Source: Polynucleobacter necessarius
GTDB taxonomy: Bacteria > Pseudomonadota > Gammaproteobacteria > Burkholderiales > Burkholderiaceae
DNA: 64,000 nucleotides
Reading direction: 5' to 3'
NCBI RefSeq assembly: GCF_900095205.1
Contig: NZ_LT606951.1
Coordinates: 1,550,001-1,614,000 of the forward strand
Each line of letters starts with the position of its first letter. Positions within the stretch are counted from its first letter, which is position 1. A program made the translations under genes and the position numbers. The notes beneath the pieces are model-generated. The model saw only the letters and a list, made by a program, of their open reading frames with translations, searched no databases and had not been told where the DNA came from. Of the stretch, positions 49,154 to 62,831 are shown piece by piece.

Positions 49154-49186
49154 ACCGCCATTTATCCCAAAAGGATATTTGGCGGT
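49154..49186 (+). terminator. Hairpin downstream of rne
   Basis: ACCGCCA at 49154-49160 pairs with TGGCGGT at 49180-49186, extended inward by TATCC/GGATA. The T run after it is short, so it is a weak terminator or an mRNA-stabilising end. Confidence 0.55.
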
Positions 49187-49223
49187 TTGGCAGAAACCCT
49201 GTTTCACAGCCATAATTGAGAAT

Positions 49224-50352
49224 ATGGTTGAAAAAGCAATTCCCAAAGTGATTCCTATACGCACCGACGAAGGCAGAGGTCTAACTCCGTCTGTTGGCAC
49301 TCATCTGCTTCAACCACATGGTCAAACCAAAGATACTCGCGGGCGTGCCTTAAGAGATCTCCGCATATCTGTAACTGATCGTTGTAATTTCCGCTGCACC
49401 TATTGCATGCCAAAGGAAGTATTCGATCAAAACTACCCTTATTTAGCTCATAAAAAATTGCTGAGCTTTGAAGAAATCGCTCGGCTGACCTCGATTTTCA
49501 CTACCTTGGGTGTGGAAAAAATTAGACTAACTGGGTGGTGAGCCTCTATTGCGCAAAAACTTAGAAGTGCTGATTGAAATGCTTGCAAAAATTCAGACAT
49601 CTGATGGTAAGCCCCTTGATCTCACCCTAACGACTAACGGCAGCATCTTGCGTAAAAAAGCTGCAGCATTAAAAGCTGCAGGACTGCAAAGGTTAACCGT
49701 CAGCCCAGATGGTCTAAACGATGCTATCTTCAAGAAAATGAATGATGTCGATTTTCCGGTAGCCGATGTGCTCGACGGAATTGCCGCAGCTCAAGAAGTT
49801 GGCTTTGAAAATATCAAAGTCAATATGGTGGTTAAAAAAGGCACAAACGATCACGAGATTGTTTCAATGGCCAAACACTTTAAAGGCAGCGGCGTCATTC
49901 TGCGCTTTATAGAATTTATGGCTGTCGGCAGTTCTAATGGTTGGAATATGGAGCAAGTGCATCCGTCTAAAGAAGTCATCGCCAGAATTAACGAAGCATT
50001 CCCTCTAGAACCAATTGAAGCGAACTACACAGGTGAAGTCGCACAGCGCTGGCGCTATCTTGATGGCACGGGAGAAATTGGTGTTATTTCTAGTGTCACT
50101 CAAACTTTCTGTCATGAATGCACTAGAGCACGCATTTCCACCGATGGGCAGATGTATCTCTGCCTTTTTGCTAACGAAGGATTTGATTTTAAAACCTTGT
50201 TGCGCTCTGGAAAAAGTGATCTTGAGATAGCCAATGCCGTAATGAATACTTGGTCAACACGCGACGATCACTATTCAGAAATTCGGGGTTCAAACACAGC
50301 AACCCAATTATCCAATGACCGCAAGGTTGAAATATCATATATTGGCGGCTAA
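49224..50352 (+). pseudogene. moaA: GTP 3',8-cyclase MoaA, single frameshift
   Basis: Radical-SAM enzyme of the first step of molybdenum cofactor synthesis. The first part has the 4Fe-4S motif [13 protein letters not shown]. Phase is lost near 49535, in a G run: removing one G restores [15 protein letters not shown], the SAM-binding GGEP motif. The second part is intact to TAA 50350-50352 and has the second cluster segment [21 protein letters not shown]. The first piece stops right at the GGEP motif, so no active enzyme is expected as read. The start ATG 49224 is the best in frame. mobA follows with a one-base overlap. Confidence 0.92.
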
Positions 50353-50952
50353 TGCTTTCCACTAAAGAGATTACGGGACTCATTCTAGCGGGCGGACGCG
50401 CACAACGGATGGGTGGTATTGATAAAGGTTTAATTCCCTTTCATGGGCAACCGCTCATAGAATCCACCATCGCTAGACTAAAACCTCAGACCCAAACCAT
50501 TCTCATTAATGCAAACCGTACCATTACGAAATATGCTGCTTATGGTTATCCCGTCATCATGGATGAGGCGCCAGATTTCTCTGGCCCTTTGGCCGGATTT
50601 TCGGTCGGCCTAAAGACCTGTAAGACCCCATATCTACTGACCCCCCTTGCGACTCCCCTCTACTTCCCAAAAACTTGGCTGAGTTATTAATTGCTGAAAT
50701 GGAGCGCGGAGATTTTCAATTGGTATACGCCTCCAGCAAAGAGCTTGATGGCAAAGTTTGGGCGCAACCTGTTTTTTGCTTAATGCGTAGCTAGAAGATT
50801 CATTGAATCAATTTCTCGAAAATGGCAATCTCAAAATTGATCGTTGGTTTAAAGATTTACGTAGCAGCACTGTAATCTTTGATGATTCCCAAGCTTTCGC
50901 TAATGTGAATACACCTGAAGAATTGCAAGCACTAGAAGACACATCCATATGA
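50352..50952 (+). pseudogene. mobA: Molybdenum cofactor guanylyltransferase MobA, two frameshifts
   Basis: Attaches GMP to molybdopterin. The signature LILAGGRAQRMGGIDKGLIPF is at the start and DFSGPLAGF follows. Phase is lost in a C run near 50645 (restoring one base gives LLTAPCDSPLLPKNLAELL) and again near 50790, just before a TAG. The tail LEDSLNQFLENGNLKIDRWF runs to TGA 50950-50952. The product as read ends after about 112 residues, without the second half of the fold. It overlaps moaA by one base and moeA by four, showing an operon. Confidence 0.9.
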
Positions 50953-52260
50953 ACCATTCCCCAAACGCACCCATCCTATTAACTTCGTCACTTCATGTGG
51001 ATGATGCTCGCAAAGCTATTGCAGGATTGGTAAACGACCTCATTCAAGAATCAACAGCCCTTCAGGATTCGACTGCTATGGAAATGGTTCCTTTGAATCA
51101 AGCGATTGATCGTATTTTGGCGGTAGATTTACTCTCACCAATCGACGTACCAGCAGCAGATAACTCTGCCATGGATGGCTTTGCATTTGATGGCAAATGT
51201 CTCGATACAGATAGCGCGGTTATTTCCTTGCGGATTGTGGGCACTGCCTTTGCTGGGAAGCCTTATGAAGGCACGGTTGCTCCTGGTGACTGCCTCAAAA
51301 TAATGACTGGCGCTGTTATGCCTGTAGGTTGCGACACCGTCATTCCTCAAGAATTTACCAGCGCGATACATGAGAGCAGCATTGAGTTCAAAGACGATCA
51401 ATTAAAGCCTGGTGAGAACCGACGCTTACGTGGCGAGGATCTTCAAAAAGGAAAACCAGCAATTGCGACTGGCAGACTACTGCGCCCTCTTCTGACCTTG
51501 GCTTAGCCGCATCCTTAGGCGTAGCCTCGCTTTTTGTGAAGCGCAAACTTAAGGTAGCCATTCTGTCTTCGGGCGATGAGCTTCGTGGCCTGGGCCAAGA
51601 ATTAGATGCTGGCAGTATTTATGACAGAAATCGCTACAGTCTGACTGGCTTACTTAATCGACTTAATTTAGACATCATCGACTGTGGGATTGTGCGTGAT
51701 GATCCTACTGCCTTGAAGCAAGCCTTCATTGAGGCTGCAGGCAAAGCGGATGTACTCATTTCTTCTGGGGGTGTTTCGGTTGGTGAAGCAGACTTCACTA
51801 AACAAATCATGGAAGAGCTTGGGGATGTCGGCTTTTGGAAAATTGCGATGCGCCCTGGCCGCCCCATGGCTTTTGGGGTCTTCAAGCCAGTATCCGGAAA
51901 TACACGCAAGACCCTCTTCTTTGGCTTACCCGGAAACCCAGTAGCAGTCATGGTGACGTTTTATCAATTCGTTCGATCTGCCTTGCTACAACTGAATGGC
52001 GCAAACCAAACAGAGCCACCGCTGACGCAGGCAATTGCTGAGGCATCCATTCGGAAAAGCCTGGACGCACCGAGTTTCAACGCGCCATCTTGGGGCGTGG
52101 AGCCGATGGGAAACCAACCGTCAGGCTGACTGGGAGTCAAGGTGCCGGCATTTTGAGATCGATGAGCGAGGCAAATTGCTTTGTCATCCTCACCCACAAT
52201 CAGGGCAACATAGCCGCTGGAGACTGGGTAGATGTAGCGCTTTTTGATGGACTGCTTTAA
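50949..52260 (+). pseudogene. moeA: Molybdopterin molybdenumtransferase MoeA, two frameshifts
   Basis: Inserts molybdate into molybdopterin-AMP. Part one (50949-51506) has PADNSAMDGFAFDG and KIMTGAVMPVGCDTVI. Phase is lost near 51490, where two extra bases interrupt LLRPSDLGLAASLGVASLF. Part two has ISSGGVSVGEADFTKQ and GLPGNPVAVMVTF. A second change near 52055 leads to a tail GRTEFQRAILGRGADGKPTV that ends in DVALFDGLL at TAA 52258-52260. Neither piece alone has a complete active site. Confidence 0.92.
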
Positions 52261-52272
52261 GATTGCGTCATC

Positions 52273-52566
52273 ATGAAACTAACCAAAAAAGAACTAGCCT
52301 TTCTAGACCCGATGCACACTGCCAAAACCTTAGTTTTGGTTTACCTATGTTTTTCCGTACCAATCGTTTTATTAGCACTGTTTGTGGCCTTCATCCGTGA
52401 TGGAGCGATTCCAGGGTTTACGGTGTTATCCGCACTCATTCTGAATGCACTTCTTGGATTTGGTTTGCTGTGGATTGCCTGCAAAGTTTACAACTGGGTA
52501 GCAGGAAAATTTGGCGGTATCGAATTAGCAATGCGTGAACTACCAGAAGAAATTGACGCGGAGTAA
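52273..52566 (+). CDS. Small membrane protein, unrecognised
   Basis: 97 residues with two predicted membrane helices (about residues 17-43, LVLVYLCFSVPIVLLALFVAF, and 50-72, VLSALILNALLGFGLLWIACKV) and a charged end (ELPEEIDAE). I do not recognise the family. It begins 12 bases after moeA and probably shares its transcript. The frame is clean although the three genes before it are broken, so it may have its own purpose. Confidence 0.65.
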   Translation: MKLTKKELAFLDPMHTAKTLVLVYLCFSVPIVLLALFVAFIRDGAIPGFTVLSALILNALLGFGLLWIACKVYNWVAGKFGGIELAMRELPEEIDAE

Positions 52567-52665
52567 TCCATCCTAATTCAAAGTTCATCTCATCAATAAA
52601 GCTGAGCAAGTACTTGGCTTTATTTTTTATCACGACCAAACTTTTAGCCCCGATAGACTTCAGCA

Positions 52666-53659
52666 TTAATCAAGCTCGGAGGTTTTTCCCTCAAGGGCTG
52701 AGCGTAAATTTTCAATCGCTAAATCAACCATTACTCTGCGAGTAGCTTCTGTAGCGCTGGCAATATGCGGAGCAAGCACCACATTACTCAACTTTAATAA
52801 TTCAGGATGGACGGATGGCTCACCCTCAAATACATCTAGACCAGCCGCAAATATTCTTTTTTCTTTGAGCGCCTGAAGCCAGTGCAGCATCATCCACAAT
52901 GCCACCACGGGCAATGTTTATCAAGGTTGCAGTCGGTTTCATGAGTGCAATTTCTTTAGCGCCAATCGTATGATGACTCCGAGCGCTATAAGGCAATACG
53001 AGCATCACATGCTCAACAGTACGAAGTAATTCTTCTTTGGAAACATACTTGGCACCATAGGCCTTTTCATCAGTATCTGATAGATGACTGCGATTGTGAT
53101 AAATCACATTCATTCCAAATCCCAATGCGCGCTTAGCAATTCCTTGACCAATGCGCCCCATGCCAATAATGCCAAGAGTACTGTGATGTAAATCCATGCC
53201 AAGTGGATTATTCACAATTGACCACTTGTCCCATAGACCTGCTCTTACCCAATGCTCAGATTCAGTAATACGTCTTGCAGTTGCCATCAATAGAGCAAAA
53301 CCGAAATCGGCTGTGTAGTGTCTGTTAATACATCTGGAGCATTGGTAGCCATTACGCCTGCAGCAGTGATTGCTGGGACATCAAAATTGTTATATCCCAC
53401 AGAAATATTAGCCACAATCTTTAGATTTTCAGCGTGAGCTAATGATTTGCATCAATTCTTTCGCTACCTGCAACTCTAAAGCCCCTACAACCCCTGAGAG
53501 TTCTTTTTGCAACTCTTCTGGACTAAAAATCCGATCTTCTTAATTGGATCGCACCGCAAAAGTTTCCTCGAGTTTTGCTAAAGCCTCTGGAAATATGGCT
53601 CTTGCCACCAAAATTTTGGGTTTTGAGTTACTAGGCAGAGAATTTGACTGTGTATTCAT
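52666..53659 (-). pseudogene. D-2-hydroxyacid dehydrogenase (glyoxylate/hydroxypyruvate reductase type), degraded
   Basis: NAD(P)-dependent dehydrogenase. From ATG 53659 the N-terminus (PKILVARAIFPEALAKLEETF) meets an in-frame TAA at 53540-53542. Further frame changes lie near 53440, 53300 and 52870. The pieces together hold the whole family: LGIIGMGRIGQGIAKRALGFGM (cofactor site), NIARGGIVDD, GLDVFEGEP and NVVLAPHIASAT with the catalytic His. No piece has both the cofactor site and the catalytic His in one frame. Confidence 0.9.
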
Positions 53660-53786
53660 AGGAGGAACTTTACCTCAACTAAATAGACCCTTTAGACCCT
53701 TTCGCCTTAAAAATAGGCCATTTCGGCTAAAATTAAACTTTTATAACCTAGCACCCATCTTTTGGGGCTCTTGAAACAAAACCACC

Positions 53787-54110
53787 ATGACTTACGTTGT
53801 TACTGAATCTTGTATCCGCTGCAAATACACCGACTGCGTTGATGTTTGCCCAGTTGACTGCTTCCGCGAAGGTCCTAATTTTTTGGTCATTGATCCGGAT
53901 GAGTGTATTGACTGCGCAGTATGCGTACCTGAATGCCCGGTAAATGCCATTTATGCTGAAGATGATGTTCCTGGTGATCAGCAAGCCTTCATCAAACTCA
54001 ATGCTGAACTCTCTCCTTCATGGACCTCGATTACCAAGTCCAAAGCAGCTCTTCCAGATGCTGAGGAATGGAAAGATGTTAAAAATAAACTTGACCAGCT
54101 CGTAAAGTAA
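53787..54110 (+). CDS. fdxA: Seven-iron type ferredoxin FdxA
   Basis: Low-potential electron carrier. 107 residues. Two cluster motifs: [18 protein letters not shown] near the N-terminus, where the altered spacing suggests a 3Fe-4S site, and [13 protein letters not shown] for a 4Fe-4S cluster. A C-terminal extension of about 50 residues is typical. The ferredoxin-NADP reductase gene follows after 20 bases, so the pair likely works together. Confidence 0.93.
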
Positions 54111-54130
54111 TTTACTAGCAAAAGAAATTT

Positions 54131-55177
54131 GTGTTGTACTCACCCACACAAACCAATGCCGTCATCATTGGCGCCGGTCCAGTGGGTCTTTTTCAGATCT
54201 TTGAATTAGGTCTGCTAGAAATTAAAGCGCATGTGATTGACTCACTCACCGAGCCAGGCGGTCAATGCATTGAGCTGTATCCAGATAAACCAATTTACGA
54301 TATCCCAGCAATTCCAGTTTGCACTGGACGTGAGCTCACTAATAATTTATTAAGGCAAATTGAACCCTTTGACGCTCAATTTCATCTTGGTCAAGAGGTC
54401 ACGAAGCTAGAGTCACAATCAGATGGTCGCTTTCTAATTAGTACCTCACAAGACAATCACTTTCTGAGCAAAACTGTATTTATTGCTGCCGGAGTTGGCG
54501 CTTTCCAACCCCGCACCATCAACCTTGAAGGTATAGATGCTTTTGTAGGGCAGCAGTTGTTTTATCACATTAAAAACCCAGAACAGTTTGCAAACAAGAG
54601 GGTGGTTATTTGCGGAGGTGGTGATGCAGCTCTGGACTGGGCCGTTCATTTTTCTGAAATTGCAGCCAGTGTTACTTTAATACACCGTCGTGATGACTTT
54701 AAAGCTGCGCCTAAATCTATTGCCAGAATGCGTGAGCTTTGCGCAAACCATCGAATGGAACTTTTGATCGGACAAGTATCTGGGTACGAAGTGAAGAATG
54801 ATCGACTGATAGAAGTTGTCTTCACTAATATTGATGGCGAATCTAAAAATATTCCCCTTGATGATCTTCTGGTGCTCTACGGACTCTCACCTAAGTTGGG
54901 GCCCATTGCAGAATGGGGTCTTGATATCGATCGCAAACAAATATGTGTTGATACCGCTAAATTTGAAACCAGCATTCCGAGAATTTATGCAGTAGGCGAT
55001 ATTAATGTTTATCCCGGCAAGAAAAAACTCATCCTGTCAGGATTTCATGAGGCTGCACTAGCTGCCTTCGCGGCAGCAGAATATCTAAACCCCGAAAAAC
55101 AGGTTCAGCTCCAATATACGACCACCTCACCCAAGCTCCACAAAGCCTTGGGAGTCAAGCCACCCACATTCGAGTAA
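54131..55177 (+). CDS. Ferredoxin-NADP reductase, thioredoxin-reductase-like type
   Basis: Flavoprotein moving electrons between NADPH and ferredoxin. [18 protein letters not shown] binds [12 protein letters not shown] replaces the redox CxxC of thioredoxin reductase, which rules that enzyme out. [14 protein letters not shown] binds NADPH, and [24 protein letters not shown] closes the FAD site. 348 residues, starting at GTG 54131, or TTG three bases on. It is paired with fdxA upstream. Confidence 0.9.
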
Positions 55178-55220
55178 GCTATCCTTTATTTGTTCATACA
55201 TAACCACTTTTAGCCTATAT

Positions 55221-56015
55221 ATGCGTCAATACCACGATCTCATGAAAGAAGTCCTTGCCAAAGGCGTCCAGAAATCCGATAGAACTGGGACTGGCACGGT
55301 TTCTGTATTTGGACATCAGATGCGCTTTAATTTGGCTGAAGGCTTTCCGATGGTGACCACTAAAAAACTCCATCTCAAATCTATCATTTATGAATTGCTC
55401 TGGTTTCTCAAGGGCAGTACAGACAATAACTGGCTGAAAGAGCGTGGCGTATCCGTTTGGAATGAGTGGGCCGCACCCGACGGCGATCTGGGGCCTATCT
55501 ATGGTTATCAATGGCGCTCATGGCCAGCCCCTAATGGTCAACACATCGATCAAATCTCCGAAGTAGTAGAGACAATTAAGAAGAATCCAGACTCACGTCG
55601 CATTATTGTTTCTGCATGGAACGTCGCAGACATACCTCGTATGGCCTTGGCACCATGCCATGCGTTCTTTCAGTTTTATGTTGCTGATGGGAAGCTGTCA
55701 TGTCAACTCTATCAACGCAGTGCAGATATCTTTTTGGGCGTACCGTTTAATATTGCTAGCTACGCCCTGCTGACGCACATGATGGCTCAACAATGTGATC
55801 TGGAGGTAGGTGACTTTATTTGGACTGGCGGAGATTGCCATTTGTATAGCAATCATTTAGAACGGGTAGAGCTCCAGCTCTCAAGGGACTTCTTCCCATT
55901 ACCCAAGCTCAATATTTTGCGCAAACCTGCTTCAATTTTTGATTACGAGTTTGAAGATTTTGAAATCGTCGGATATGAATCCCATCCACACATCAAAGCT
56001 CCTGTAGCTATTTAA
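55221..56015 (+). CDS. thyA: Thymidylate synthase
   Basis: Makes dTMP from dUMP with methylene-tetrahydrofolate. The active-site Cys is in [12 protein letters not shown], and [13 protein letters not shown] and [20 protein letters not shown] complete the signature. 264 residues, the E. coli length. It lies 15 bases ahead of folA, whose product regenerates the cofactor. Confidence 0.97.
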
Positions 56016-56030
56016 GAATCTAGCCCCCTT

Positions 56031-56519
56031 ATGACGCAACCTGCTATTTCTATGATTGTCGCGCGCTCGCGCAAACACGTGATTGGTCGTGACAATCAAA
56101 TGCCTTGGAAGATATCTGCTGATTTACAGTTTTTCAAACGCGTCACTATGGGGCATCCTGTCATCATGGGTCGTAAGACTTGGGAATCTATTGGGCGCCC
56201 CCTGCCTGGACGTCGCAATATCGTCGTGAGTCGCAATGCCAATTTTCAACTGGCCGGAGCAGAGTTAGCTAGCTCATTAGAAGAGGCATTAAATCGCTTA
56301 AGCGATTTTTCTCGTGTGTTTGTCATTGGTGGCAAGCAGCTCTTTAATCAAGCTTTTGATATTGCAGATCGGCTTTACATCACCGAGATTGATTTAGACA
56401 TTGACGGCGGAGATACTTTCTTCGAGGTTCCGGATGCATCCGAATGGAAAGAGGTGGAGCGTACTCCAGGATCTGAGGGTGATATCACATTCAATTTCAT
56501 TACGCTAGAGCGGAAATAA
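56031..56519 (+). CDS. folA: Dihydrofolate reductase
   Basis: Reduces dihydrofolate to tetrahydrofolate. 162 residues: ISMIVARSRKHVIGRDNQMPW near the N-terminus, with the catalytic acid in the DLQFFKRVT region, then VIMGRKTWESIGRPLPGR and FVIGGKQLF. Intact. It partners thyA and is followed immediately by a terminator. Confidence 0.96.
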   Translation: MTQPAISMIVARSRKHVIGRDNQMPWKISADLQFFKRVTMGHPVIMGRKTWESIGRPLPGRRNIVVSRNANFQLAGAELASSLEEALNRLSDFSRVFVIGGKQLFNQAFDIADRLYITEIDLDIDGGDTFFEVPDASEWKEVERTPGSEGDITFNFITLERK

Positions 56520-56545
56520 AAAAGGACTCCGAGGAGTCCTTTTTT
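56518..56545 (+). terminator. Intrinsic terminator after folA
   Basis: AAAAAAGGACTCC and GGAGTCCTTTTT are exact complements around a 3-base loop, with the T run on the folA side. The first bases overlap the folA stop codon. Confidence 0.85.
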
Positions 56546-56558
56546 AAGCCACATTAAA

Positions 56559-57395
56559 TCACTGAACAACAATCTTTGCATCCTTAGCAATCTAACTTAA
56601 AAATTCATATTGCTTTCTTTGAGTCAACGCAGCACGAATAGCAGGCTTTGCTTGCTCTAGCGCAGGTGGCTTAGTCGATCTTTTATCTTCGAGCTTGATC
56701 AAATACCAACCTTGTTGCATTTGGATTGGGGTCTGTGAAACCTGGCCCTTAGCAAGACTAGTTAAGACGCTCGCTAACTGAGGGGTAACTTGCCCAGCTT
56801 GAATCCATCCTACCGCTCCCCCTTGAGCCTTATTGGGTGCTAAAGAAACACTTTTTGCTACCTTATCAAATGACTCCCTTTTTTAATACGAGCCAATGCA
56901 GCCTGAGCATCCGCTTCTGAGGCAACTGCAATATCACTCACCTTGTATTCATTAATCATTCCCTGAGGGCCGAGGGATGCAATCTCATTTTTGTATTGAG
57001 CTTCAACATCGGCGTCTGTAACTGGATTTTTTGCCATGTATATAGAGAGCTCTAAATCCGCCAAATAATTCTGACGAATCATCAGCAATTGTGTACTGGC
57101 TCTTTCAGAATTCGCCAGACCATCCTTTTCAGCCTGTTGAGCAAGCAATAACACTTCAATGAACTTTTGAATTACAGCCTTACGCAACTCTGGGGAATCT
57201 TTTTGCCCCTGGGAAATGGCAACCTTAATACCCTGCTCCACCATGTCATTGGTAATAATGGTTCCATTCACAGAGGCTGCAGCATTGATTGGTAACCCAC
57301 TTTGTTGAGCATAAGCGCCACATACAAATGCGCTGGTCAATACTCCAACAGCAATAAATGCGAATGAACAAGAGATTGAATACAAAAGGTTTCAT
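56559..57395 (-). pseudogene. Periplasmic parvulin-type peptidyl-prolyl isomerase, degraded
   Basis: SurA/PrsA-like foldase. The ATG at 57395 (MKPF) is out of phase with the signal peptide that follows (AFVCGAYAQQ). The SurA-like N domain is open down to RIKKG. Phase is lost near 56880, and the parvulin domain continues in another frame (GGAVGWIQAGQVTPQLA, QTPIQMQQGWYLIKLED). An in-frame TAG at 56592-56594 precedes the last residues IAKDAKIVVQ, which end at 56559. So three lesions: start region, middle and near the end. Confidence 0.88.
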
Positions 57396-57479
57396 AAGGA
57401 TTTAGTCTTTCTAATAATTAGCCTCAATATTAACAGCAGACATTCTGCGCACCCTAATACACCAAGCTAAAATGCCATG

Positions 57480-58106
57480 ATGTGCGTTCAATACATCACT
57501 ACTGTCAATATTGGTTGGGTTAAGTCCCACTTTGATCTTGACCTGCCAATGAGCAGCGTACTTGAAGTATTTCCAACCTACCCCGGCCCCATCATTCTCA
57601 AAAGCCACAACACCAACCGAACCGCCATAGGTTTAGCGCGTTTTGGCCTGATACCTTCATGGGCAAAAGAGGAGACCTTTGGTAGAAAAACCTATAACAC
57701 TAGGGTGGAGACGGTAGATCAAAAACCATCCTATAGACATGCTTGGTCGCAACGTCATTACGCGTTAACTTTAGCGGATGCTTTTTACGAACCCTGCTAT
57801 AAATCAGGTAAAGCAATACGCACTGCAATCAAACAAGCGAATCAAGAGCCCATGGCAATTGCTTCTATCTGGGATACCTGGACCGAGCCAGAAACCGGGG
57901 AACTCATAGCCTCGTTTTCAATGCTAACAATTGATGCAAGTGCTCACCCAGTAATGCAACGCATGCATAAACCTGAAGATGAGAAACGCACAGTAGTTCC
58001 ATTAAAGCCCGAACTATTCGATGCATGGCTTAATGCAACACCAGAAGAAGCACGCGCCTTACTTCATTTAAATTCAATGCCTGAGTTAATTATACTGTCT
58101 AGCTAG
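57480..58106 (+). CDS. SRAP-domain protein (YedK/HMCES family)
   Basis: Family protein that shields abasic sites in single-stranded DNA by forming a covalent link with Cys2. The start ATG 57480 gives MCVQYITTV, placing Cys at residue 2 as required. Other active-site features: NTRVETV (Asn), ADAFYEP (Glu) and SAHPVMQRMHKP (His), all present. The usual MCGRY start reads MCVQY here, so the conserved Gly3-Arg4 are replaced. 208 residues. DNA binding at residue 4 may be altered. Confidence 0.88.
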   Translation: MCVQYITTVNIGWVKSHFDLDLPMSSVLEVFPTYPGPIILKSHNTNRTAIGLARFGLIPSWAKEETFGRKTYNTRVETVDQKPSYRHAWSQRHYALTLADAFYEPCYKSGKAIRTAIKQANQEPMAIASIWDTWTEPETGELIASFSMLTIDASAHPVMQRMHKPEDEKRTVVPLKPELFDAWLNATPEEARALLHLNSMPELIILSS

Positions 58107-58130
58107 GGAATTGAGTTTCTTCTAAAGACT

Positions 58131-58455
58131 CTAAAAACTAATGACGGGACTCATAGGCTGATAGGGTTCAGCTGATTCCGCTTCTAGAGCCTCAGCCTCT
58201 TCCTCACCCTTCGATTGACTATAGTATTTCGAATCTATTGAAGGCTTCTTGGAAGGATCCATTTGTTTTGCATTCGGAGCAACCGGTCAAAATGGACCCT
58301 CAACAGGAGTAAGAGGCTGACTATTAAACTCGTTGATCTCTTGCGGAGTATGGAGAGTATGTCTGCATTCCTGCGTTCGGCGAAGGGCTTTGAGCCCATG
58401 CGCAGAAGCTCATGAATAACGGGCAAGGGATTAATCCGATAAGGTATTTAGACAT
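58131..58455 (-). pseudogene. Small secreted protein, degraded
   Basis: From ATG 58455 a signal peptide (MSKYLIGLIPCPLFMSFCAW ending in AQ) is followed by SPSPNAGMQTYS. Phase is then lost near 58360. One frame over come PQEINEFNSQPLTPVEGPF, an in-frame TGA near 58294, then PVAPNAKQMDPSKKP and an acidic tail to TAG 58131-58133. The parts fit one low-complexity exported protein of about 105 residues. The family is unknown to me. Confidence 0.55.
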
Positions 58456-58515
58456 AGGCACCATTGTAGGTGAGGTGGGTCATTTACTTTCCCTTCAATT
58501 AATTACAATGCCAAG

Positions 58516-59406
58516 ATGTATTTATATCGAGTCCTTGCGCTAGCCTTATTGCTGCTTCCATCTATTTGCTTGGCGGTAGATTTGCAGCCCAATGATATCG
58601 TCGCGCCACTACCAGGCAAAAGTCATGCGATGTTTAGTTATCTCAATACAGGGAGCGGCACTTTCTACAAAAATGGTTCGGCTATCTCGTCCAAACCCTT
58701 TGTCAGCCCCGATATCAATACTCAAAGCGCTATAGCTCGTATCAGTACGAGTTATTCCATCATGGATTTGCCAGGGATTTCTTATCTCCAGATCCCCTAT
58801 GGATCGATTAAGCCCACTGGATCTCTTGCAGAATATTCTGCAACTACTGGCTTTGGCGACCTCACCTTTGCTACCGCAGTATGGCCTTATGCGGACAGAG
58901 AAAAAAGGCGGTACTTTGGCATAGCTGGCTATCTAACTGCACCGACAGGAAGTTATAACAGTCAGCAAGTTTTTAATGTTAGCGAGAACCGCTATAAAAC
59001 AGATATTCAAATGGGCTATCAGCAACCCATTATTGAAAATTTGGATGGGATGATTGCCGTCGACACGATGTGGTTTGGAGGCAATAGTCAGTGCGCTGCC
59101 GCGTGTTTCTCAACAAACAATACCTCGCTAAATCAGAAAATACTCACCACCACACAGCTTGGGCCTATTTATAAGATTAATCAAACCTACACTCTAGGTG
59201 CCTCCTATTTCTATGTGGCAAGTGGCGCCACCACAATTGGTAACACCTATCAAAACAATGTTGTGAATACACAGCGCTTGTTGCTGAGCGCTTTGGCACA
59301 TTACCCATTTGGCAGAATCAGCCTTCAATACGGACGTGACATGGAAATTAAAAATGGCTTCATTGAAACCCGTCGCTTGATCGTTCGCTACACAACCGAG
59401 TTTTAA
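58516..59406 (+). CDS. Outer-membrane beta-barrel protein, phenol-degradation meta-pathway (MetA) type
   Basis: 296 residues. A signal peptide ends ICLAVD. The mature part is a run of amphipathic beta strands (ISYLQIPYGSIKPTGSLAEY, TTGFGDLTFATAVWPYA, YFGIAGYLTAPTGSYN, KTDIQMGYQQPI, TLGASYFYVASGAT) and ends in Phe, as barrel proteins do. The GFGDL and LTAPTG motifs match the family annotated from phenol-degradation clusters. The substrate is unknown, and no aromatic-degradation genes lie nearby. Intact. Confidence 0.8.
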   Translation: MYLYRVLALALLLLPSICLAVDLQPNDIVAPLPGKSHAMFSYLNTGSGTFYKNGSAISSKPFVSPDINTQSAIARISTSYSIMDLPGISYLQIPYGSIKPTGSLAEYSATTGFGDLTFATAVWPYADREKRRYFGIAGYLTAPTGSYNSQQVFNVSENRYKTDIQMGYQQPIIENLDGMIAVDTMWFGGNSQCAAACFSTNNTSLNQKILTTTQLGPIYKINQTYTLGASYFYVASGATTIGNTYQNNVVNTQRLLLSALAHYPFGRISLQYGRDMEIKNGFIETRRLIVRYTTEF

Positions 59407-59411
59407 GTTTT

Positions 59412-60005
59412 TTATACTCGCTTGCGCTGGATAAGATGTTTAATCATCGGCAGTCGGCAGGCAAGCAGCATCAGTAAGACTGCGCCATAAATAGAAACTA
59501 CCTCTAAATCATTTTTACCAGCCTTATGCCACCAGTAGTGAGCGATGGCAGTACAGGCAACTACATAAATAAGCTTGTGTAATAAACTCCAGCGTCTTCC
59601 TAATTTTCGAACAGCCCATTGATTTGATGTCAGAGCTAAAGGAGTTAGCAATACTAAAGTCAAAAATCCCATAGTAATAAATGGTCTCTTCAAGACATCG
59701 CCCCACATCGACTGAATATCTAAGTTTTGATCTAACCAAAACCAAATTGAAAAATGAATACAGGCATAAAAGAAGCAAAACAGGCCTAACATACGTCGCA
59801 ACTTTACCCATGCAACATGATTAGTAAGCAAGCGCAATGGAGTCATCGCAAGCGTGATGCATAAAAAGATTAGTGCCCAAGTGCCAGTTGAACGAATAAT
59901 GAATTCGATGGGATTGGCTCCTTGGTCTTCATGAACACCAAGCCAGATCAAACGGGCTAGCGGTATTAGGGATAGCAAAAAGACGATTGCCTTAACTGAA
60001 TTCAT
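59412..60005 (-). CDS. msrQ: Heme-binding membrane subunit MsrQ of the periplasmic methionine-sulfoxide reductase
   Basis: Heme b membrane protein that feeds electrons from the quinone pool or flavin to MsrP. 197 residues with six hydrophobic segments. Candidate heme His lie in FFYACIHFSIWFW, KLGRRWSLLHKLIYVV and ACTAIAHYWWHKAG. Intact. MsrP, the periplasmic molybdenum enzyme usually encoded just upstream, is not here: the upstream neighbour is the broken iorB. This leaves MsrQ without its partner in this window. Confidence 0.9.
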   Translation of the reverse strand: MNSVKAIVFLLSLIPLARLIWLGVHEDQGANPIEFIIRSTGTWALIFLCITLAMTPLRLLTNHVAWVKLRRMLGLFCFFYACIHFSIWFWLDQNLDIQSMWGDVLKRPFITMGFLTLVLLTPLALTSNQWAVRKLGRRWSLLHKLIYVVACTAIAHYWWHKAGKNDLEVVSIYGAVLLMLLACRLPMIKHLIQRKRV

Positions 60006-60018
60006 AAGCCATATTAAA

Positions 60019-60050
60019 CGACCCTATTCATTATCAAACTAATAGGGTCG
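60019..60050 (-). terminator. Hairpin between iorB relic and msrQ
   Basis: CGACCCTATT at 60019-60028 is the exact complement of AATAGGGTCG at 60041-60050, with a 12-base loop and TTTAATA after it on the minus strand. It is probably the terminator of the iorAB transcript. Confidence 0.65.
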
Positions 60051-60078
60051 ATTCATCAAAAATAGCCTGAATTGATAT

Positions 60079-62309
60079 CTAAGCCAAACTCAACCCTTCT
60101 TTGCTCAGCGGAAAATTGCGAACGGACCCACCAATTGCAGCAAAAACTGCATTCGCAACTGCTGGACCAACGACACAGATCGTGGGTTCACCTACCCCAC
60201 CCCAGAAATCATAACTAGGTACGAGAACGGTTTCAATTCTAGGGGTAGAGGCCAATTTCAGTAGTGGATAAGTATCTAAATTCTGCTGCTTAATGCGGCC
60301 ATTTTCCACGGAGATCTCAGGCAAGAAATAGCCCCCAATGCCATCGCTATAGAACCTTCAATTTGCTCACGAGTTAAGTAAGGATTAACTACATGCCCAG
60401 AATTTAAAGCAAAGACTAAACGAGTTACTTTCACTACATTATTCTGAACCGTCACCTCTGCTACACAAGCAGAGTAACTGGCGTAACCCATGAACTGTGC
60501 AATACTGCGAAACGTTCCTGCGGGCAAAGGCTTATCCCACTCTGCTTTTTAGTGGCAGCATTTAGTACGCCTAAATGCTTTGGATGACTCTGCATCAGCG
60601 CTTGCCTAAATTGCACTGGGTCCTTTCCAGCCGCCTTTGCACACTCATCCATGAAGCATTCCATAAAAATGCCATTTTGATTTGTATTCACACCACGCCA
60701 TGGACCAACAGGTACGTGGGTATTTTTCATAACGTATTCGGTTAAGAGTGTTGGAAAAGTGTAGCCAAGTTGTGCATCTGGTCCATTCTCATAAAAACCC
60801 TGAAGTTGACGCTCATCCTTACCATTCTTGATGCTTTGTGGGGCTAGGGTTGCTAATTGATTGGCCAGCAACCTTAATATGCATGCCAGTGACATTTCCA
60901 GAACCATCAATACCCGCAGTCATCTTTGCCATTGCGATTGGATAATAGTAATCATGAGTCATATCTTCTTCACGACTCCAAACTACTTTGACTGGGATGC
61001 CTGGGAATTTTTGCGCCACTTTAGCGGCTAAGGTTGTGAAATCCTGCGTTGATCCACAACGACCTAAACCACAGCCAGAATCTAATTTATAAACTTCACA
61101 ATTGGTAAGCGGAAATCCAGTGGCTTCAGATAATGCAGCTAATGAACCCTCTCCATTTTGAGTTGGCACCCATGCCTCTGCTCGATCGCCTGTGATTTTA
61201 ACGGTAGCATTCATTGGCTCCATCGTGACGTGAGCACGATAAGGTGTGTAATAAATGGTTTCTACTTTTTTTGCGGCACTATTAAATAGCAGCAGGCGCA
61301 TCTCCTACTTTGCGCTGCCAAAAATCACTTTGCTCATCCAGACCTTCACGCAACATTTTATTAATGCCATCTTGTGAAACGGTAGCAGCTTTGCCTTCAT
61401 CCCAAACAATAGGCATTGCATTCAGCGCGGCGTTGGCATACCACCAAGTATCAGCCACTACAGCAACTGTGCTGTCCTTAATTTTGACAACGCCCTTAAC
61501 GCCACGCATCTCTTTAATCTTGGCTTCGTCATAGCTCACTAATTTGCCGCCAAATACTGGGCAAGCCTTGACAGAGGCACAAAGCATCCCCGGGAGTTGC
61601 AAGTCAATGCCATATACCTTGGATCCATTGACTTTGTTAGCTGTATCAATCCGAGCATAGGGCTGCCCTGCTACTTTCCACTTTCGTGGATCTCTGAGGG
61701 TAATTGATTTTGGATCAGACGGAGTTAGGGTCGAAGCTAATTCAGCCACCTTGCCATAAGTTATTTTACGCCCCGTTGGCACATGAACAATGATGCCTTT
61801 ATCCACCACCAGTTCATTAACGGGCACATTCCACTGATTGGCTGCAGCCTGCATCAACATCATTCGCGCTGCTGCTGCTCCCCGACGAACATAGTCCTCA
61901 GAAATACGAATACCACGGCTACCGCCTGTACCATGCTCTCCCCAAACACGCTTCCGCGCCAAGCTTTGACCAGGAGTAGCGGATTGAGTTTTAACTTTCT
62001 TCCAATTGCATTCCAACTCTTCTGCTACCAACTGAGCTAATCCAGCACGAGTACCCTGCCCCATCTCAGAGCGGGCAATTCTGATGAGAACTGTGTCATC
62101 AGGTTTGATGCTAACCCAAGCATTTACTTCGGACTCTCCAACTTGAATAGGCGTATTGGGATCATATATAGCTAGAGCCTGTGCATAAGCATCCTCAGGC
62201 AATGAGCCTCTACCCTCAACATCAAGCCACCACCAATCATGGTGCCCTTGATAATAAATTCACGACGGGAAGAGTTTTCTAAACGAATAAACGGTTTATA
62301 AGTAGTCAT
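60079..62309 (-). pseudogene. Isoquinoline 1-oxidoreductase beta-subunit-type molybdoenzyme, degraded
   Basis: Large catalytic subunit of the xanthine-oxidase family, holding the molybdopterin cofactor. ATG 62309 opens a twin-arginine signal (SSRREFIIKG). The phase is then lost near 62210. Pieces in three frames follow: MGQGTRAGLAQLVAEEL and GEHGTGGSRGIRISEDYVRR (cofactor contacts), CGLGRCGSTQDF, PWRGVNTNQNGIFMECF and VGEPTICVVGPAVANAVFAA. At least five frame changes (near 62210, 61290, 60880, 60515, 60310). No single frame holds the active site. It is coupled to the iorA relic 10 bases upstream. Confidence 0.9.
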
Positions 62310-62319
62310 ATTTACCCCC

Positions 62320-62831
62320 TTACCCGCGAGTCGCTGGAGTGGCGCCGTATTGCGCTAAAACATCCACCAACTTCTTTTGACCAGAAGCCACATGGATTCC
62401 ATCGCGAATCTTTTGGTAAGTACCGCAATGGCATAAATTTCCCATCGCATTATCAATGTCGGCATCGGTAGGCTTTGGATTTCTTTTTAAGAGGGCTGCC
62501 CGCAGCCATTATTTGACCAGGCTGACAATAACCACACTGAGGTACATCTGGAGCAATCCAAGCTTGCTGCACTGGATGCATAGAATTTTTAGATAAGGCT
62601 TCAATAGTAGTGATTTTGGCCTTACCGACTGCAGATACCGGAATAGAGCAAGAACGAACAGGCTCTCCATTGAGGTAAACGGGTACAGGCGCCACATTGC
62701 GCTACGCCACAACCGTACTTAGTTCCCGTTAACCCTACCACCTCCCGAATAGCCCATAACAAGGGCATATTGGGTTCCACATCGATATTTTGAATCTGCC
62801 CGTTAATATCTAACTGCATATTGCCTCCCAT
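62320..62831 (-). pseudogene. [2Fe-2S] subunit of the isoquinoline oxidoreductase-type enzyme, degraded
   Basis: Small iron-sulfur subunit for electron transfer from the Mo site. From ATG 62831 ([21 protein letters not shown], after four residues) it holds [10 protein letters not shown], part of the plant-ferredoxin-like cluster. Phase changes near 62695 and again near 62490. The second cluster motif [12 protein letters not shown] is in the middle frame and the tail with [12 protein letters not shown] in the third, to TAA 62320-62322. No frame holds all eight cluster cysteines. Confidence 0.9.

What the first reader, a model, noticed from the sequence alone, without database searches (positions are those of the whole stretch)
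49224..62831. Coordinated collapse of molybdenum cofactor synthesis and a molybdoenzyme
Seen: moaA (one frameshift), mobA (two) and moeA (two) are all broken in one operon at 49224-52260. The iorAB-type xanthine-oxidase-family genes at 60079-62831 carry at least seven frame changes. Known: MoaA, MobA and MoeA act in one pathway, and iorAB-type enzymes need its product. Inference: the cell has given up molybdenum metabolism; lesion density suggests the enzyme decayed longer than the cofactor genes.
Basis: partly seen in the sequence, partly recalled or inferred. Interest (0 to 1): 0.72.

Follow-up and report, generated by a model that had tools for sequence, protein, structure and literature searches.

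The report
Bacterium losing molybdenum enzymes and cofactor
A freshwater bacterium that is probably turning into a symbiont has recently broken nearly all its genes for making and using the molybdenum cofactor, and related lineages have lost the same pathway separately, so this is a well-documented case of a known kind of gene loss.

Summary
Against unaffected Polynucleobacter relatives, moaA carries one frameshift, mobA two, moeA two, and the iorAB-type genes seven. Random sequencing error is unlikely: lesions clump by gene and include nonsense changes. In this 1.93-Mb genome (G000) the rest of molybdenum metabolism found is broken too: second moeA, moaE, mog, three formate-dehydrogenase/PhsA-like enzymes, a SoxC enzyme, MsrP and two more xanthine-oxidase-family enzymes. 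MoaC, moaD and MsrQ are intact, which chance allows for short genes. In all, 15 of 17 molybdenum genes present are broken against 102 of 236 others. Five other single-contig genomes of the genus have broken moaA; at least three of the six losses are independent, since sister genomes keep moaA whole. The claim that the enzyme decayed longer than the cofactor genes fails: lesion density and amino-acid change do not differ. In one sister lineage (G117) cofactor genes carry more lesions and three enzymes are still open. Best reading: recent relaxed-selection decay in what is probably an endosymbiont. Loss of exactly these genes in obligate intracellular bacteria is already published (PMC2688493).

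The parts
49179..50352 (+). moaA pseudogene (GTP 3',8-cyclase), one frameshift, two ORFs
   Evidence: TIGR02666 fragments 91.4 and 243.5 bits against cut-off 284; alignment to intact relatives
50352..50946 (+). mobA pseudogene (molybdenum cofactor guanylyltransferase), two frameshifts
   Evidence: TIGR02665 on the first fragment
50949..52257 (+). moeA pseudogene (molybdopterin molybdotransferase, copy 1), two frameshifts
   Evidence: NF007960 on two fragments
60082..62314 (-). iorB-type xanthine-oxidase-family molybdenum subunit, pseudogene, five frameshifts
   Evidence: MoCoBD_2 on the main fragment, MoCoBD_1 and MoCoBD_2 on the intact relative
62323..62819 (-). iorA-type [2Fe-2S] subunit, pseudogene, two frameshifts
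   Evidence: Fer2 fragment
59412..60005 (-). msrQ (haem-binding partner of the molybdoenzyme MsrP), intact; its partner msrP, about 9 kb to the right outside the window, is broken
   Evidence: NF003831 164.8 bits over cut-off 130; msrP three frameshifts
52647..53659 (-). non-molybdenum pseudogene in the same span (2-hydroxyacid dehydrogenase-like)
   Evidence: (four frameshifts), PF02826 on a fragment
56562..57358 (-). non-molybdenum pseudogene in the same span (SurA-like)
   Evidence: one frameshift; SurA_N_3 on a fragment
53787..56519 (+). intact neighbours used as controls: ferredoxin, fpr, thyA, folA (names by eye)
   Evidence: single open frames over full length

Best explanation
The molybdenum-cofactor genes and the molybdoenzymes of this Polynucleobacter stopped being under selection recently, most likely when its lineage became an obligate endosymbiont (probably of a ciliate). 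They are now decaying together by frameshifts and nonsense mutations. Shown: molybdenum genes are broken far more often than other genes, lesion density does not differ across the pathway, substitutions show little relaxed selection yet, and at least three lineages lost the pathway separately. Inferred: the symbiotic life, the loss of need for the enzymes as the cause, and that the cell makes no active cofactor.
For: G000: 15 of 17 present molybdenum genes broken against 102 of 236 others (Fisher p 2.8e-4; length-matched P 1e-4). Six lineages: cofactor genes present and broken 34 of 46 against background 146 of 648 (stratified odds ratio 10.3, p 4.5e-14). MoaA is broken in 6 of 6. The tree puts G000 with G002 (support 100), G017 with G014 (100) and G117 with G105 (93), and these three partners have a single-frame moaA. 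Intact moaC, moaD and msrQ fit neutral survival (0.35, 0.57, 0.27). NuoG is open in 6 of 6. A TupB-like permease and the ABC ATPase beside it, next to the FDH3 genes: at least one of the two is broken in 6 of 6. [quoted passage not shown]
Against: 102 of 236 other genes compared in G000 (43%) are broken as well, so much of the signal is general decay; the enrichment is weak in G133 alone (p 0.063). Genes in one operon are not independent. G103, G106 and G133 are weakly placed on the tree, so six independent losses are not shown. Lesions coincide between lineages slightly more than chance (16 pairs against 9.6, P 0.039), six of them at one site in mog.
Confidence: 0.88

Rival explanations
1. 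The frameshifts are sequencing or assembly errors and the genes are intact.
For: Substitution pattern of the broken molybdenum genes is as conserved as that of intact genes (omega 0.037 in both), and frameshifts lie near homopolymers of 5 or more in 43 of 241 cases against 33 of 560 random places.
Against: Lesions clump by gene (Pearson dispersion 1.96, p 2e-17) and a 19.6-kb run has none (Poisson probability 3.5e-10); 50 of 268 lesions are nonsense changes; NuoG is open in all six genomes; five other genomes show the same pathway broken, mostly at different sites.
Confidence: 0.05
2. The molybdenum genes are only caught up in genome-wide decay, with no pathway-level pattern.
For: 113 of 247 present genes in 278 kb are broken or truncated; non-molybdenum genes in the finding's own span are broken too.
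Against: 15 of 17 against 102 of 236, also with length matching; six-lineage enrichment; 5 of 8 cofactor genes are broken in at least 80% of the lineages that have them, against 9 of 106 background genes, of which three turned out to be FDH3-locus or TupB-like transporter genes.
Confidence: 0.25
3. Enzymes were lost first and the cofactor genes followed once nothing used the cofactor.
For: Logical expectation; iorAB has slightly more lesions per kb than the operon (2.52 against 1.62).
Against: The difference is not significant (p 0.57) and is not seen over all genes (cofactor 2.30, enzymes 1.84 per kb, p 0.50); amino-acid change is equal. In G117 the order looks reversed: cofactor 8 lesions in 6.03 kb, enzymes 2 in 10.43 kb (p 0.0066, one of six tests).
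Confidence: 0.1
4. The host supplies cofactor or its precursor, so the enzymes could still work in the lineages that keep them open.
For: G117 keeps FdhA, MsrP and one XO-family enzyme open without an intact moaA.
Against: In G000 no molybdoenzyme found is open. If the host is a ciliate: PMC6147048 counts Ciliophora among the alveolates that appear to have lost molybdenum use (passage). No cofactor importer is known to me (recalled).
Confidence: 0.04

Closest known systems
Convergent loss of molybdenum-cofactor genes in obligate intracellular bacteria (Merhej et al. 2009, PMC2688493, section 7 read)
   Different: There presence and absence are compared across phyla; here the genes are recent, still alignable pseudogenes in several lineages of one genus whose sister genomes keep moaA whole.
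Polynucleobacter endosymbionts of Euplotes with parallel genome reduction (Boscaro et al. 2013, 2017; recalled, not held; summarised in PMC11253213, passages)
   Same: Same genus, reduced genomes, more pseudogenes, independent origins.
   Different: I could not read whether those papers treat the molybdenum pathway; searches for Polynucleobacter with 'molybdenum cofactor' and with 'Moco' listed four papers and one paper, none on this by title and start of abstract.
Azoamicaceae respiratory endosymbionts (PMC11549363, passages; one species is from an anaerobic ciliate, start of abstract)
   Same: Reduced endosymbiont genomes, at least one in a ciliate.
   Different: All five genomes keep moaABCDE, moeAB and mobA, which the paper links to nitrate reductase; the opposite outcome.
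Lower frequency of the molybdenum trait with host-associated life (PMC6147048, passages)
   Same: 56.30% of host-associated bacteria have it against 94.05% of terrestrial ones; organisms with part of the trait and orphan molybdoproteins are described.
   Different: A survey across species, not a within-genus series of losses in progress.

Membership tests
Functional molybdenum-cofactor pathway | Intact MoaA | tested here: not met
   Two pieces, no further TIGR02666 match
Functional molybdenum-cofactor pathway | Intact MoaC, MoaD and MoaE | tested here: not met
   MoaC and MoaD open, MoaE two frameshifts
Functional molybdenum-cofactor pathway | Intact Mog and at least one MoeA | tested here: not met
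   Mog and both MoeA copies broken
Functional molybdenum-cofactor pathway | Molybdate uptake (ModABC or TupABC) | tested here: inconclusive
   TupB-like permease (166 bits, under the cut-off of 320) beside FDH3 broken, the ATPase beside it open; modABC not searched
Molybdoenzyme-bearing cell | At least one open catalytic subunit (DMSO-reductase, sulfite-oxidase or xanthine-oxidase family) | tested here: not met
   PF00384, PF00174, PF02738 in G000: none open except NuoG; MOSC/mARC and AOR families not searched
Recent pseudogenisation in a nascent endosymbiont | Large share of broken genes that are whole in a close sister | tested here: met
   113 of 247 present genes broken or truncated against G002
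Recent pseudogenisation in a nascent endosymbiont | Lives inside a host | not testable with these tools
Parallel loss in independent lineages | Affected lineages nested among unaffected ones | tested here: met
   Three lineages with support 93-100; three others weakly placed

The most novel reading that the evidence does not exclude
Molybdenum metabolism is one of the most predictable early losses when Polynucleobacter enters a molybdenum-free ciliate. It is lost in every symbiotic lineage by mostly different mutations, with uptake and cofactor synthesis tending to fail before the enzymes, which leaves short-lived orphan apoenzymes (as in G117) that date the transition.
Probability: 0.3. Interest if true: 0.6.

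Novelty: new member of a known kind. Interest (0 to 1): 0.4.

Why it matters
It offers replicated natural experiments in losing a whole cofactor pathway: at least three independent lineages, each with a sister genome that keeps moaA whole, caught while the genes still align. That makes the order of loss (cofactor or enzyme first) and the predictability of gene loss in new symbionts testable within one genus, and it contrasts with respiratory endosymbionts that keep the same pathway for nitrate reductase.

Tried and rejected
Rejected: sequencing error; enzyme decayed longer; a rescuing second copy of moaA or moeA. A moco riboswitch upstream of the operon: Rfam at gathering thresholds found only two tRNAs in the window and in one stretch each of G121 and G002. 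Shared ancestral lesions: 16 coincident pairs among 167 frameshifts against 9.6 expected (P 0.039), six of them at one mog site; the G000 moaA lesion coincides with none of the other lineages'. A claim that msrQ, moaC or moaD are kept by selection: not supported, since chance survival is 0.27-0.57.

Mistakes and choices: one search listed no nonsense changes because my alignment scored a stop as a gap; one search recounted and found 50. The tblastn tables overcount stops beside frameshifts; counts come and later scripts. My 'broken' label ignores lesions in about the first 20-40 residues and the last 5%, so the late frameshift of G133 moeA2 (residue 393 of 412) counts as intact. In one search I dropped the G117 iorA row (61% identity, a paralogue). 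In one search I dropped three molybdenum genes from the background and used only genes present in at least 3 of 6 lineages (60 genes); the other FDH3-locus and transporter genes stayed in the background, which is conservative. The G000 background uses ORFs of at least 100 aa, while moaD has 85. One of the 19 tree genes (r048) is itself broken in G000. dS is near saturation, so one search is rough.

Not done: modABC, FdhD, MoeB, MOSC and AOR families were not searched (12 of 12 genome searches used); no whole-genome six-lineage background. Seven draft genomes without a full moaA match (G051, G064, G066, G093, G161, G162, G169) were not examined. Loci L285-L287 were fetched and not used.
Full report
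What was given. The finding claims that moaA, mobA and moeA (one operon) and an iorAB-type molybdoenzyme are all broken, that the cell has given up molybdenum metabolism, and that the enzyme decayed longer than the cofactor genes.

The genome. The window is G000:C1:1550001-1614000 of a single-contig genome of 1,934,415 bases, 99.92% complete. Relatives of the iorB fragment at 82-90% protein identity are Polynucleobacter isolates or betaproteobacterial MAGs. Gene order around the finding is largely the same in the relatives compared.

The lesions. With G121 as reference only 58% of iorA aligned. Family models match the moa/mob/moe fragments, each below the MoaA, MobA or MoeA cut-off. The intact IorB relative belongs to the xanthine-oxidase/aldehyde-dehydrogenase family.

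Are they real? I compared 261 ORFs of at least 100 aa of G002 with the matching part of G000: 134 intact, 112 broken, 1 truncated, 14 absent; 218 frameshifts and 50 nonsense changes (which corrects). Lesions per gene are overdispersed (1.96, p 2e-17) and a run of 19 genes (19.6 kb) has none. Random sequencing error does not do that. Frameshifts are enriched near homopolymers (43 of 241 against 33 of 560 random places), as slippage would be, but that would also suit some sequencing errors; reads were not available.

The rest of the pathway in G000. MoaC and moaD are open; moaE, mog and the second moeA are broken. TIGR02666 has two matches in G000, and PF04055 places two moaA pieces in the window. 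Of the molybdoenzymes, these are broken: a formate dehydrogenase (FdhA, over the TIGR01591 cut-off in the relative), a second one (FDH3 type by its beta subunit), a PhsA-like enzyme (below cut-off), a SoxC enzyme, MsrP (names) and three xanthine-oxidase-family enzymes including iorB. One SoxC and one xanthine-oxidase-family enzyme of G121 have no counterpart. The one open PF00384 protein is NuoG of complex I. MsrQ, the partner of MsrP, is open in the window. A TupB-like permease beside FDH3 is broken; its TupB score, 166, is under the cut-off of 320, so the substrate is not certain. ModABC was not searched.

Is it more than the background? Of 17 molybdenum genes present, 15 are broken; of 236 other genes present, 102 (Fisher p 2.8e-4; length-matched draws P 1e-4). 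The two open ones are short, and at the lesion rate of the pathway (2.21 per kb) they would escape with probability 0.35 and 0.57; open msrQ with 0.27. So the pathway behaves like one neutral unit, within a genome in which 113 of 247 genes compared are broken or truncated.

Other lineages. MoaA was sought in 186 genomes of the genus. By my hand count of that table 61 are single-contig (list recounted), and 6 of these have a broken moaA: G000, G017, G103, G106, G117 and G133 (lesions; G106 must still pass the family cut-off with its larger piece, by deduction from the tally). A 19-gene, 5585-column tree places G000 with G002 (support 100), G017 with G014 (100) and G117 with G105 (93); these three partners have a full single-frame moaA, so at least three losses are independent. 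G103, G106 and G133 sit on separate but weakly supported branches.

Six-lineage test. Cofactor genes broken or absent: 36 of 48, against 38 of 330 for 55 neighbouring genes (odds ratio 25, p 3e-24). Those neighbours are rich in conserved genes, so I added 60 genes from four other regions and counted present genes only: 34 of 46 against 146 of 648 (odds ratio 10.3, p 4.5e-14; five lineages p 0.0004-0.034, G133 0.063). MoaA is broken in 6 of 6; moeA1, moeA2, mobA and mog in 5 of 6; moaE in 4 of 6; moaC and moaD in 2 of 5 present. Among 106 background genes present in at least five lineages, 9 are broken in at least 80% of them, against 5 of 8 cofactor genes (p 6e-4). Three of these nine turned out to be an Fe-S protein of the FDH3 locus, the FDH3-locus gamma subunit and the TupB-like permease, an after-the-fact observation.

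Order of loss. In G000 the moaA-mobA-moeA operon has 5 lesions in 3.08 kb and iorAB 7 in 2.78 kb (p 0.57). Over all genes, cofactor 14 in 6.08 kb, enzymes 33 in 17.97 kb (p 0.50). Amino-acid changes found only in G000 are 20 of 756 sites in the operon and 20 of 716 in iorAB. In G117, cofactor genes carry 8 lesions in 6.03 kb and enzymes 2 in 10.43 kb (p 0.0066, one of six tests; the other five p 0.23-0.89), and FdhA, MsrP and one xanthine-oxidase-family enzyme are open: cofactor first. G133 keeps MsrP open. The order may differ by lineage.

Timing. Broken molybdenum genes have dN/dS 0.037 against G002, the same as intact genes (0.037); other broken genes 0.051. G000-only changes are more frequent in broken molybdenum genes than in intact ones (63 of 2108 against 240 of 13125 sites), but so are G002-only changes (28 against 138), and the ratio does not differ (p 0.33). 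Decay is recent compared with the split from G002 (dS about 0.9, near saturation).

Mechanism, shown and inferred. Shown: loss-of-function lesions across the pathway, no difference in density within G000, recent onset, repeated independent loss. Inferred: the lineage is an endosymbiont in which the oxidations done by these enzymes are no longer needed, so enzymes and cofactor genes drift together; without MoaA no cofactor can be made (established biochemistry, recalled). Polynucleobacter symbionts of Euplotes have independent origins and many pseudogenes (PMC11253213, passages; PMC5018217, passages). PMC6147048 counts Ciliophora among the alveolates that appear to have lost molybdenum use (passage), so a ciliate host would be unlikely to supply the cofactor. 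The host of G000 is not recorded in what I can see.

Compared with what is known. Merhej et al. [quoted passage not shown] seven are this pathway and one is molybdate transport (PMC2688493, section 7). Host-associated bacteria have the trait less often (PMC6147048, passages). Azoamicaceae endosymbionts keep the pathway for nitrate reductase (PMC11549363, passages), which suggests that the loss follows need rather than endosymbiosis as such. Searches 'Polynucleobacter' with 'molybdenum cofactor', with 'Moco', 'molybdenum cofactor biosynthesis, pseudogene, endosymbiont, genome reduction' and 'moaA, pseudogene, symbiont, molybdopterin' listed no paper whose title or start of abstract reports this case; the two main Boscaro papers are not held, so it may be in print there.

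Verdict. Observation confirmed; interpretation partly supported. A replicated new member of a known, already published kind of reductive evolution.

Noticed in passing
G000:C1:1335001-1630000 (L262-L271, L170, window, L171): 113 of 247 genes present relative to G002 are broken or truncated, so this genome is in early, heavy decay.
   Followed up: yes
L121, L191, L214 (G117): G117 has broken moaA, mobA, both moeA, moaE and mog but open FdhA, MsrP and one xanthine-oxidase-family enzyme: orphan apoenzymes.
   Followed up: partly
mog in L177 (G000), L114 (G103), L157 (G117), L118 (G133), residues 97-100: A frameshift falls at nearly the same codon of mog in four of six lineages, where runs are only 3-4 bases; a mutational hotspot or an unexplained coincidence.
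   Followed up: partly
L179:15298-16690 and counterparts in L264, L288, L291, L294, L297, L299: A TupB-like permease and an ABC ATPase beside the FDH3 genes: at least one of the two is broken in each of the six lineages.
   Followed up: partly
window about 10.1-11.7 kb and 18.7-19.8 kb (PhoH-like and L-asparaginase-like by eye): These two genes are broken in 4 and 5 of 6 lineages while most neighbours are intact.
   Followed up: no
G000:C1:1223817-1224309 (L176): A 296-aa MoCF-domain protein (NMN deamidase-related by a below-cut-off NCBIfam match) is broken in G000, G017 and G106 and open in G103, G117 and G133.
   Followed up: partly
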